In this document: piece by piece, positions 18,210 to 41,894 of the stretch
Numbering within the stretch: the stretch's first letter is position 1
How the letters are laid out: the number at the start of each line of letters is the position of its first letter
Source of the DNA: Lachnospiraceae bacterium
GTDB lineage: Bacteria > Bacillota > Clostridia > Lachnospirales > Lachnospiraceae
DNA: 64,000 nt
Assembly (NCBI GenBank): GCA_024689465.1
Contig: JAILDL010000013.1
Coordinates: 1-64,000, forward strand
Reading direction: 5' to 3'
Position numbers and translations under genes: made by a program
Notes under the pieces: model-generated
Told to the model about the DNA's origin: nothing
What the model saw: only the letters and a program-made list of their open reading frames with translations
Database searches by the model: none

Positions 18210-18238
18210 TTGACAGGAACGATTGTTTGCTTTATGAT
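18210..18238 (+). promoter_or_regulatory. recA promoter
   Basis: TTGACA at 18210-18215 and TATGAT at 18233-18238 are separated by exactly 17 bases. They lie about 45 bases upstream of the recA ATG. Confidence 0.85.
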
Positions 18239-18244
18239 TAAAAA

Positions 18245-18258
18245 CGAACAGACGTTCT
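18245..18258. promoter_or_regulatory. LexA (SOS) box
   Basis: CGAACAGACGTTCT fits the Gram-positive LexA operator GAAC-N4-GTTC. It lies just downstream of the recA -10 element, where a bound repressor would block initiation. This makes recA-recX SOS-inducible by inference. Confidence 0.85.
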
Positions 18259-18280: not shown

Positions 18281-19351
18281 ATGGCAAACGAAGAAAAGCA
18301 AAAAGCATTGGAAGCGGCCTTAGCCCAGATTGAAAAGGCTTATGGTAAGGGCGCTGTTATGAAGTTAGGCGATCCCGCCGCACAGATGGATATCAAGACC
18401 ATTCCCACCGGTTCTCTAAGTCTGGACCTGGCCCTTGGTCTTGGCGGCATCCCGAAGGGCAGGATCGTAGAAATATACGGACCGGAATCTTCCGGTAAGA
18501 CCACCGTTACCCTGCACATGATCGCAGAGGTTCAGAAGAGAGGCGGTATTGCGGGCTTCATTGATGCAGAGCATGCACTGGATCCTGTATATGCTAAGAA
18601 CATCGGCGTAGATATTGATAACCTGTATATTTCCCAGCCGGATAACGGAGAGCAGGCCCTGGAGATCGCAGAGACCCTGGTTCGTTCCGGTGCGCTGGAG
18701 ATCGTAGTAGTGGACTCTGTTGCCGCTCTGGTTCCCAAGCAGGAGATTGAAGGTGATATGGGCGATTCCCATGTGGGTCTGCAGGCTCGTCTGATGTCCC
18801 AGGCCCTGCGTAAGTTAACGGCCATCATCAGCAAGACCAACTGTACGGTTGTTTTCATTAACCAGCTGCGTGAGAAGATCGGTGTTATGTTTGGTAACCC
18901 CGAGACAACGACCGGTGGTAGAGCACTGAAGTTCTATGCCTCCGTACGTTTGGACGTTCGTAAGATCGATACCCTGAAGCAGGCCGGCGAAGTCATCGGT
19001 AACCGTACCCGCGTCAGAGTGGTTAAGAATAAGGTGGCTCCTCCCTTTAAGGAGGCAGAATTTGATATCATGTTCGGTAAGGGTATTTCCTTCTCCGGCG
19101 ATGTTCTGGATCTGGCTTCCAACGTAGACATCGTTAATAAGAGCGGTGCATGGTATGCCTACAACGGAGAGAAGATCGGACAGGGTCGGGAGAATGCCAA
19201 GCTTTATCTGGAAGAGCATCCGGACATTTGCGATGAGATCGCGACCAAGGTAAAGGAGCATTACGGTGTAGGAGAGCTTCTGGAAGATGCAGAGGCAGAA
19301 GATGACGCACCGGCTAAGAAGGCCTCCAGAAAAGCCAAAGAAGAGGATTAA
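18281..19351 (+). CDS. recA: Recombinase RecA
   Basis: RecA forms ATP-dependent filaments on single-stranded DNA for strand exchange and drives LexA self-cleavage. The 356-residue protein has Walker [10 protein letters not shown], the [11 protein letters not shown] segment and the [20 protein letters not shown] loop region. Its C-terminal tail is acidic and lysine-rich, ending [18 protein letters not shown] precedes the ATG. It has its own promoter and LexA box, and is followed by recX after 14 bases. Confidence 0.98.
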
Positions 19352-41531: not shown

Positions 41532-41560
41532 TTGACGATTGGAGCTTTTAATGTTAGTAT
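41532..41560 (+). promoter_or_regulatory. Promoter of the antisense RNA (antitoxin)
   Basis: TTGACG at 41532-41537 and TAGTAT at 41555-41560 are spaced by exactly 17 bases, with a start expected near 41567. Confidence 0.7.
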
Positions 41561-41566
41561 TTTTAT

Positions 41567-41660
41567 AGAAAAAAGTGCTACCGGTAGACGGTTAGCCTAG
41601 GTTTCTGATGGTATAGAATAACCGCTCAGTCCGGCAAGACTATGGGCGGTTATTTTTGTG
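41567..41660 (+). ncRNA. Predicted antisense RNA antitoxin, about 90 nt
   Basis: Between the + strand promoter and the hairpin terminator lies a transcript with no open frame. It is fully complementary to the 3' region of the toxin mRNA on the other strand, including the last few codons. This convergent layout is that of Bacillus TxpA/RatA and BsrG/SR4 pairs. Existence is inferred from promoter and terminator only. Confidence 0.65.
41618..41657 (+). terminator. Terminator of the antisense RNA
   Basis: A 9-bp stem AATAACCGC / GCGGTTATT, with inner AGTC / GACT pairing, runs into TTTTTG on the + strand. On the - strand the hairpin lacks a good T run; toxin mRNA may end at the later TTTTTTC beyond 41575. 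Confidence 0.75.
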
Positions 41661-41751
41661 TCTTGGAGTCATGCTTTCCAAACATGTGACCAAGACAGAA
41701 GAACGTTGCACATAGTGCAAGTACTGCAATCAAGTCGCTGATTGTGAGCAT
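41650..41751 (-). CDS. Small hydrophobic peptide, putative type I toxin (holin-like / TxpA-like)
   Basis: A 33-codon gene. The peptide starts MLTISDLIAVLALC, has one membrane segment (about residues 6-24) and a basic tail ending KHDSKTQK. This pattern matches membrane toxins of type I systems, including Pfam-type putative holin-like toxins. TAAGGAGG lies nine bases before the ATG, an ideal ribosome site. It has a near-consensus promoter 110 bases upstream and an antisense RNA at its 3' end. Expected action is insertion into the inner face of the membrane when the antisense RNA fails. Family assignment rests on layout and composition, not on a database search. Confidence 0.75.
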   Translation of the reverse strand: MLTISDLIAVLALCATFFCLGHMFGKHDSKTQK

Positions 41752-41865
41752 AACACGAATCCTCCTTACACGGATTTCTCTAAAGAGATTTCTATGTTAA
41801 CAGAGGTCACAGTCCTCTGATGAAGGACTAACCGCCTACCGTTGATACTGGTAGCACCAGGAACA

Positions 41866-41894
41866 ATTATATCGAACAGACATTCTGCGGTCAA
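41866..41894 (-). promoter_or_regulatory. Toxin promoter, near consensus
   Basis: On the - strand TTGACC (41894-41889) and a perfect TATAAT (41871-41866) are separated by 17 bases. Start expected near 41859, giving a leader of about 108 bases. That leader holds three further small hairpins, for example CAGAGG / CCTCTG and AGTCCT / AGGACT. Confidence 0.88.

What the first reader, a model, noticed from the sequence alone, without database searches (positions are those of the whole stretch)
41532..41894. Compact type I toxin-antitoxin locus with convergent antisense RNA, unmarked by any long ORF
Seen directly: a 33-codon membrane peptide gene on the - strand (41751-41650) with TAAGGAGG, and a promoter TTGACC-17-TATAAT. 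A convergent promoter TTGACG-17-TAGTAT on the + strand ends in a strong hairpin plus T run at 41657. The two RNAs overlap by about 90 bases at the toxin 3' end. This is the TxpA/RatA and BsrG/SR4 architecture known in Bacillus. The peptide itself I cannot match to a named toxin, so this may be a new lineage of the holin-like group in gut clostridia.
Basis: partly seen in the sequence, partly recalled or inferred. Interest (0 to 1): 0.88.

Follow-up and report, generated by a model that had tools for sequence, protein, structure and literature searches.

The report
SOS-controlled toxin–antisense RNA locus
A tiny membrane-peptide gene paired with an antisense RNA, found in many Lachnospiraceae gut bacteria, carries almost the same DNA-damage switch as recA, which suggests a self-poisoning module that is released when the cell's DNA is damaged.

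Summary
The 33-codon ORF, its ribosome-binding site, both convergent promoters and the shared terminator are at the stated places. Conservation shows they matter: the peptide hits 74 of 397 sampled genomes of the same family (at least two hits look spurious), with pN/pS 0.26. An antisense promoter faces it in 112 of 129 loci, against about 12 in shuffles. The peptide passed no Pfam or NCBIfam cut-off and no Rfam, PADLOC or PHROGs match was convincing.

Two features were missed. (1) The toxin mRNA's 5' and 3' ends pair over about 25 bp; 17 of 25 pairs show changes on both sides, and pairing favours the mRNA strand in 74 of 74 and 58 of 60 loci. (2) The toxin promoter carries a LexA/SOS box, 13 of 14 bases identical to a recA box in this window. 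A clostridial LexA motif is in 44 of 129 toxin promoters, 1 of 129 antisense promoters and 0 of 343 control stretches.

Best reading: a new type I toxin–antitoxin family whose branch with this window is de-repressed by DNA damage. Review passages I saw name such SOS control for E. coli. Toxicity, transcription and LexA binding are untested.

The parts
41650..41751 (-). 33-codon ORF of the predicted membrane toxin, stop codon included
   Evidence: best 19-mer Kyte-Doolittle mean 2.24; pN/pS 0.26 over codons 2-27 in 60 loci of 33 codons, pooled over 734 pairs
41761..41767 (-). Shine-Dalgarno AAGGAGG
   Evidence: read; similar motif at similar spacing in most of the relatives printed
41866..41894 (-). 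toxin promoter TTGACC-17-TATAAT
   Evidence: a promoter of 9 of 12 or better in this stretch in 108 of 129 loci against 13.8 in base shuffles
41873..41886 (.). LexA/SOS box CGAACAGACATTCT (+ strand), inside the toxin promoter
   Evidence: 13 of 14 bases identical to the recA box CGAACAGACGTTCT at 18245-18258
41826..41858 (-). 5' arm of the long-range mRNA pairing (GGTGCTACC...CGGTAGGCGGTTAGTCC)
41575..41597 (-). 3' arm of the long-range mRNA pairing (GGCTAACCGTCTACCGGTAGCAC), followed by T6 at 41574-41569
   Evidence: in 5 of 129 loci a local intrinsic terminator in the toxin direction follows the arm directly, 0 of 283 control stretches
41617..41654 (.). shared hairpin: terminator of the antisense RNA (TTTTT at 41653-41657) and possible early terminator of the toxin mRNA
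   Evidence: 3 of its 9 pairs show changes on both sides in 25 loci, one of them A-U in 16 and G-C in 9
41532..41560 (+). antisense (antitoxin RNA) promoter TTGACG-17-TAGTAT
   Evidence: 9 of 12 or better in 112 of 129 loci against 11.75 in base shuffles
41567..41657 (+). predicted antisense RNA, about 91 nt (start inferred from the -10)
   Evidence: inference from promoter and terminator; fold z -3.9 for 41566-41660; no transcript data

Best explanation
A chromosomal type I toxin-antitoxin locus under SOS control. In undamaged cells LexA sits on the toxin promoter while the opposite promoter, which lacks the box in nearly all loci examined, makes an antisense RNA complementary to the toxin mRNA's 3' UTR and stop codon. 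Any leaky toxin mRNA is held down in two ways: its ends zip together (5' arm with 3' arm) with the Shine-Dalgarno locally paired, and the antisense RNA pairs perfectly with the 3' arm. Two G-U wobbles are kept in the 5'-3' zipper (23 and 24 of 25 loci), so the antisense RNA, which makes Watson-Crick pairs there, should win by strand displacement and give a long duplex open to RNase III, as RatA does. On DNA damage LexA is cleaved, toxin mRNA outruns the antisense RNA, and a single-helix membrane peptide is made that slows or arrests growth. Shown by sequence and conservation: the ORF, both promoters, the terminator, the 5'-3' pairing and the LexA box. Inferred: transcription, LexA binding, toxicity, the antisense mechanism, RNase III.
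For: Family: 74 of 397 sampled family genomes; 80 named loci, mostly labelled Lachnospiraceae genera. Coding: pN/pS 0.26. Antisense promoter: 112 of 129. 5'-3' pairing with the terminator stem: 95.5% of cells paired against 90.2% in shuffles and 31-48% when slid; in the two arm helices 17 of 25 pairs have changes on both sides; G-U 90 against A-C 13 cells, 47 of the 90 from the two fixed wobbles; real arms pair better than permuted arms, 0 of 10,000. SOS box: 60 of 129 loci at <=1 mismatch, with 25 of 74 against 1.3 +/- 0.9 in dinucleotide shuffles in the first set; GAAC-N4-GTTY in 44 of 129 toxin promoters, 1 of 129 antisense promoters and 0 of 343 control stretches; GAAC-N5-TTY, the looser published form that the window's box fits, 61 against 1 of 129; Hol_Tox loci 0 of 19 at <=1 mismatch. 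In the own genome a box-plus-(-10) pattern has two places: this promoter and the lexA upstream region; reversed control 0. recA, in the same window, has boxes of the same form, one of them in its promoter spacer.
Against: No expression, binding or toxicity data exist. The window's box has one mismatch in a half-site, and 17 places in the 64-kb window fit GAAC-N4-GTTC with <=1 mismatch, so such a site alone is weak; the stricter CGAAC-N4-GTTYG has 0 places in the own genome while its reversed control has 7. The pattern was written after seeing toxin promoters, so the toxin hit there is by construction. 69 of 129 loci lack a box at <=1 mismatch; in the 'SFG' branch only 5 of 44 have one, so SOS control belongs to a branch, not to the whole family. 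The model does not show that the 5'-3' pairing hides the Shine-Dalgarno: mean unpaired probability is 0.30 in the full mRNA and 0.25 in the truncated one, with 6 loci clearly more and 29 clearly less paired in the full form, of 128. 18 of 92 intact first-set ORFs had no arm pair found (14 by pattern or contig end, 4 removed by hand); in some of these the upstream region is unlike the family's. The permutation test ignores relatedness, and the structure counted was written by me from folds of members.
Confidence: 0.75

Rival explanations
1. A type I toxin-antitoxin locus as described, but not SOS-controlled in this organism: the box-like sequence is a decayed or chance site and the locus is a stability module or a remnant of past mobility.
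For: Box has one half-site mismatch; 17 such sites lie in the 64-kb window; the stricter form has 0 places in the genome; many relatives lack the box; the own genome also holds a 60-base remnant of the locus, so copies decay.
Against: 13 of 14 bases shared with a recA box in the same window; box placed between -35 and -10 like one of the recA boxes; 40 of 49 loci of the window's own peptide branch have a box at <=1 mismatch.
Confidence: 0.12
2. A LexA-controlled small membrane protein that stops cell division or acts in repair (YneA-, SosA- or DinQ-like), not a self-poison; the antisense RNA only tunes its level.
For: SOS box in the toxin promoter; single hydrophobic stretch. Membrane division inhibitors of the SOS response are recalled knowledge.
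Against: The genome already has what reads like a YneA-like LysM gene divergent from lexA (my reading of the sequence); 33 aa with dedicated antisense RNA, strong SD and terminator overlap are marks of type I loci; several genomes carry 2-4 matches.
Confidence: 0.1
3. The conserved entity is an RNA element or miniature mobile element with terminal inverted repeats; the peptide is incidental.
For: Inverted repeats at both ends; remnant copy elsewhere in the genome; varied neighbours; a structured insert recurs inside some 5' UTRs.
Against: Purifying selection on the reading frame, pN/pS 0.26; repeats keep G-U on the mRNA strand, 74 of 74 and 58 of 60, which a DNA-level repeat would not; both promoters lie outside the repeats.
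Confidence: 0.03

Closest known systems
Hol_Tox (PF16935; TxpA/RatA and BsrG/SR4 group)
   Same: Peptide of about 30 aa with hydrophobic stretch and charged tail; convergent antisense RNA; terminator at the stop codon. Several Hol_Tox loci of the same family of bacteria show, by eye, the same plan of complementary ends.
   Different: 0 of 45 members match the Pfam model at E <= 1; profile comparison is only suggestive. 0 of 19 Hol_Tox loci had a LexA box at <=1 mismatch.
TisB/IstR-1, DinQ/AgrB, SymE/SymR (E. coli)
   Same: LexA-controlled toxin promoter plus antisense RNA; TisB and DinQ are small membrane peptides (passages of PMC8309996, PMC6562991, PMC1891008).
   Different: Another phylum; no sequence comparison with them was run here beyond the family libraries. 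Here the antisense RNA is convergent and overlaps the 3' UTR, and the 5'-3' zipper is of the Hok/AapA kind.
AapA/IsoA (Helicobacter) and hok/Sok
   Same: 5'-3' long-distance pairing of the toxin mRNA (passages of PMC6733600).
   Different: There the pairing traps the SD; here the SD is predicted paired with or without it.
Type I loci of C. difficile and TxpA-/Fst-like sequences of C. bolteae
   Same: Clostridia, convergent overlapping genes, small membrane peptides (abstract and passages of PMC6563280).
   Different: That review reports no sequence homology of the C. difficile toxins to other known ones; its one passage on SOS control names E. coli systems. No direct comparison with this peptide was run.

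Membership tests
Type I toxin-antitoxin locus | small hydrophobic peptide under coding selection | tested here: met
Type I toxin-antitoxin locus | antisense RNA gene overlapping the toxin mRNA | tested here: met
   promoter and terminator conserved; transcript itself not seen
Type I toxin-antitoxin locus | peptide toxic, antisense RNA protects | not testable with these tools
   needs expression experiment
Hol_Tox PF16935 (TxpA/BsrG) | match to the family profile above cut-off | tested here: not met
Hol_Tox PF16935 (TxpA/BsrG) | common ancestry by profile-profile comparison | tested here: inconclusive
   E 4.8e-4, probability 32%, 28 columns without gaps
Hol_Tox PF16935 (TxpA/BsrG) | convergent antisense RNA over the toxin 3' end | tested here: met
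LexA (SOS) regulon | LexA box overlapping the promoter, of the form used by recA/lexA in the same genome | tested here: met
   one half-site mismatch, and the strict form CGAAC-N4-GTTYG is absent from the genome
LexA (SOS) regulon | lexA and recA present | tested here: met
   lexA at C171; recA 18281-19351
LexA (SOS) regulon | induction by DNA damage | not testable with these tools
   needs RNA measurement
Hok/AapA-type mRNA fold-back | 5'-3' long-range pairing of the toxin mRNA | tested here: met
Hok/AapA-type mRNA fold-back | the long-range pairing itself hides the SD | tested here: not met
   SD about as paired, or more, without the 3' arm
Fst/par locus | direct repeats at the two RNA 5' ends giving complementarity (recalled) | tested here: not met
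   the repeats here are inverted

The most novel reading that the evidence does not exclude
The locus is an SOS-triggered guard that settles in operons, with the toxin facing against them. In the LexA-box loci of the named set 55 of 59 flanking ORFs point the other way, so read-through from the operon would itself yield antitoxin RNA, and losing or silencing the operon would arm the toxin. The commonest Pfam family among the flank proteins scanned is the type I restriction specificity subunit (11 of 131), which would tie a DNA-damage suicide switch to restriction systems. Against it: the LexA-box loci of the first, more diverse set show 12 of 23, and the window locus has no restriction neighbour.
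Probability: 0.12. Interest if true: 0.8.

Novelty: new variant of a known kind. Interest (0 to 1): 0.62.

Why it matters
In the review passages I saw, SOS-controlled type I toxins are named for E. coli. A widespread family without a named model in Lachnospiraceae, common gut and rumen bacteria, would show the same control logic in another phylum, joined to an mRNA fold-back like that of Helicobacter. It gives a directly testable lead on how gut anaerobes answer DNA-damaging drugs, and a set of loci with strong covariation on which antisense-mRNA competition can be studied.

Tried and rejected
Membership in Hol_Tox by profile: rejected at sequence level. For the window's own peptide the weak hits BcsF and EpuA are below their cut-offs. 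Among 45 members the best Pfam match is Proton_antipo_N (10 members, best E 2.2e-5); ZZ_ADA2, BcsF and EpuA follow; that table shows no cut-offs. I took these as likeness of hydrophobic helices. Five members scanned singly gave only PetM, below its cut-off. PHROGs: best E 0.0025 in 45 members. PADLOC: nothing, window peptide only. Rfam: nothing at gathering in the window or at E <= 1 on the locus. Terminal repeats of a mobile element: disfavoured by the strand test. Fst-type direct repeats: not so. LexA boxes in the antisense promoter: not enriched (2 of 74 at <=1 mismatch against 1.1). SD hiding by the long-range pairing: not supported. Empty-site comparison with the one same-genus genome: the neighbouring gene differs there, so no clean empty site. 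Orientation bias: strong in the named set (113 of 133 flanks opposite) but absent in the unnamed set (22 of 43), so kept only as a lead. Phages: 1 of 50,697 records, E 0.02, and no plasmid record; 1 locus in viral contigs. No structure prediction was run; a 33-residue helix would decide little.

Rows dropped. Of the places, L095 and L103 look like unrelated longer ORFs. One search gave 111 hits, 110 kept; 92 passed length, start and stop filters; 74 had both arms after 4 were removed by hand as misplaced. One decayed copy (L043) stays in. Of 80 named loci 64 were intact with enough flank, 63 non-identical, 60 with both arms by pattern, a few of these perhaps misplaced; 5 of the 60 repeat first-set loci. 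134 merged to 129. A1 holds 45 of 86 distinct peptides; A4 holds 25 of 36 chosen from 117 loci, and in A4 the window's outer arm is shifted by the aligner. The flank scan used 131 of 151 flank ORFs found. Rival odds were lowered slightly on the second pass only so that all odds add up to one.

Full report
What was checked. The ORF at 41751-41650 (-), its SD, both promoters and the hairpin are present as described. The promoter scan alone is near chance (4 sites against 2.5 +/- 1.6), so the case rests on conservation. The minus-strand RNA folds far better than shuffles (z -7.6), largely because its two ends pair: 41826-41858 with 41575-41597.

The family. A search with the peptide found it in 74 of 397 genomes of the same bacterial family at E <= 0.01; two of the hits looked spurious on inspection. 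A profile search of 391 genomes of the class found 11 at E <= 1e-4, of which 9 are in the same family. A named collection gave 80 loci, mostly labelled Butyrivibrio, Pseudobutyrivibrio, Oribacterium, [Clostridium] aminophilum, Coprococcus comes, Hominisplanchenecus faecis or uncultured Lachnospiraceae; one record is labelled Alistipes, probably a binning error (the last is my inference). Two glycines are invariant in 45 aligned members, consensus MLTIxDLIAVxSLCxTxFxLGYxxGKxxxKTQK. In 60 loci of 33 codons, pN/pS over codons 2-27 is 0.26, pooled over 734 pairs; in the last five codons pS falls from 0.44 to 0.15. That is what one expects if those codons also serve the antisense terminator: ACACAAAAATAA on one strand is TTATTTTTGTGT on the other.

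The antisense RNA. In 112 of 129 loci a promoter of at least 9 of 12 matches faces the toxin just beyond the 3' arm; base shuffles give 11.75. The terminator stem has compensatory changes in 3 of 9 pairs.

The 5'-3' zipper. In the first set 74 of 74 loci pair better on the mRNA strand than on the opposite strand, and real partners pair better than all 10,000 permutations. In the named set it is 58 of 60 (5 of these 60 repeat first-set loci). 18 of 92 intact first-set ORFs had no arm pair that could be used. In a 25-sequence alignment 95.5% of cells pair (zipper and terminator stem together; shuffles 90.2%), 17 of the 25 zipper pairs show changes on both sides, and sliding the partner by one to three columns drops pairing to 31-48%. 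G-U cells outnumber A-C cells 90 to 13, so it is the toxin mRNA that folds, and it must extend past the inner hairpin. Five of 129 loci have a local intrinsic terminator right after the 3' arm in the toxin direction (0 of 283 control stretches). The SD is predicted paired both with and without the 3' arm (0.30 and 0.25 unpaired over 128 loci; 6 loci clearly more and 29 clearly less paired in the full form); in the window it is almost fully paired (0.005). So the zipper's role is not simple SD hiding. Two wobble pairs are kept in 23 and 24 of 25 loci, where the antisense RNA would form Watson-Crick pairs; I infer tuned competition.

The SOS box. GAAC-N4-GTTC with at most one mismatch lies in the toxin promoter in 25 of 74 loci of the first set (dinucleotide shuffles 1.3 +/- 0.9) and in 60 of 129 overall; in the peptide branch of the window 40 of 49, in the SFG branch 5 of 44, in the rest 15 of 36. 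The motif GAAC-N4-GTTY, among those used for the C. difficile LexA regulon, where LexA binding to the recA operator was measured (passages of PMC4234289), is in 44 of 129 toxin promoters, 1 of 129 antisense promoters and 0 of 343 control stretches; the looser published form GAAC-N5-TTY, which the window's box fits, is in 61 and 1 of 129. The window's own box, CGAACAGACATTCT, differs in one base from a recA box in the same window, CGAACAGACGTTCT at 18245-18258; recA has a second box in its promoter spacer. A box-plus-(-10) pattern, written after seeing the toxin promoters, has two places in the 2.97-Mb draft: this promoter and the upstream region of lexA, in the promoter of a divergent YneA-like LysM gene (the LysM and YneA labels are my reading of the sequence). 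Against this, the stricter CGAAC-N4-GTTYG has no place in the genome (reversed control 7), and one-mismatch sites are not rare: 17 in the 64-kb window.

Neighbourhood. The window locus lies between a GDSL lipase and an alpha/beta hydrolase gene; no phage gene is adjacent. Among relatives, type I restriction genes recur: 17 of 184 loci have a flank ORF similar to one of five seed proteins (HsdS, HsdM, RhuM-like), 0 of 20 Hol_Tox loci (the 184 include repeated loci and many short flanks). HsdS is the commonest Pfam family among 131 flank proteins of the named set, 11 members, against 5 for ABC transporters.

Literature. I saw listings, and passages of eight papers; none was read whole. Passages in reviews name symE, tisB and dinQ of E. 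coli as SOS-controlled type I toxins (PMC6562991, PMC6563280, PMC8309996). One review passage places TisB/IstR in Bacillus subtilis (PMC8167048) but another passage calls it an E. coli system; I take this as a slip. By titles and abstract openings, no listed paper describes this peptide or an SOS-controlled type I toxin of Firmicutes; most subscription papers are not in the library. The RatA and RNase III comparison rests on passages of PMC8167048.

Verdict. A real, conserved type I toxin-antitoxin family without a model of its own in the libraries searched, with LexA control in the branch that includes the window and a covarying mRNA end-to-end pairing. Toxicity, transcription and LexA binding are predictions.

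Noticed in passing
own genome C161:25956-26015 (L003 about 2457-2516): A remnant of the locus (60 bases, 81% identity): only the ORF's 3' end and the terminator hairpin survive, just upstream of a Fur-like regulator ORF (the label is my reading).
   Followed up: partly
window 18210-18258: recA promoter TTGACA-17-TATGAT with two LexA-type boxes, one inside the spacer; a good internal reference for the SOS motif of this organism.
   Followed up: yes
L142, L144, L163, L165, L167, L171, L173 and others: The locus lies beside or between type I restriction genes (hsdS, hsdM) in some relatives; 17 of 184 loci with a restriction- or RhuM-like flank, 11 of 131 flank proteins are HsdS.
   Followed up: partly
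named loci L136-L215: Flanking ORFs point against the toxin in 113 of 133 cases, but not in the unnamed set (22 of 43) nor around Hol_Tox loci (14 of 29).
   Followed up: partly
L068, L087, L090, L023 (5' UTR): A structured insert of about 50 nt recurs at the same place in the 5' UTR hairpin; near-identical in L068 (one copy), L087 and L090, another sequence in L023. Origin unknown.
   Followed up: no
L107-L126: Several Hol_Tox loci of the same bacterial family show, by eye, the same plan: terminator at the stop codon and complementary 5' and 3' ends. The zipper may be general to clostridial type I loci.
   Followed up: partly
L014, L019, L028: Two copies of the toxin ORF lie a few hundred bases apart; the second copy in L014 and L028 lacks a clear start.
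   Followed up: no
L005, L007, L014, L018, L021, L082 (antisense promoter): GAAT-N4-GTTT overlaps the antisense -35 at a nearly fixed place in a subset, though boxes are not enriched overall there; possibly weak LexA control of both promoters.
   Followed up: no
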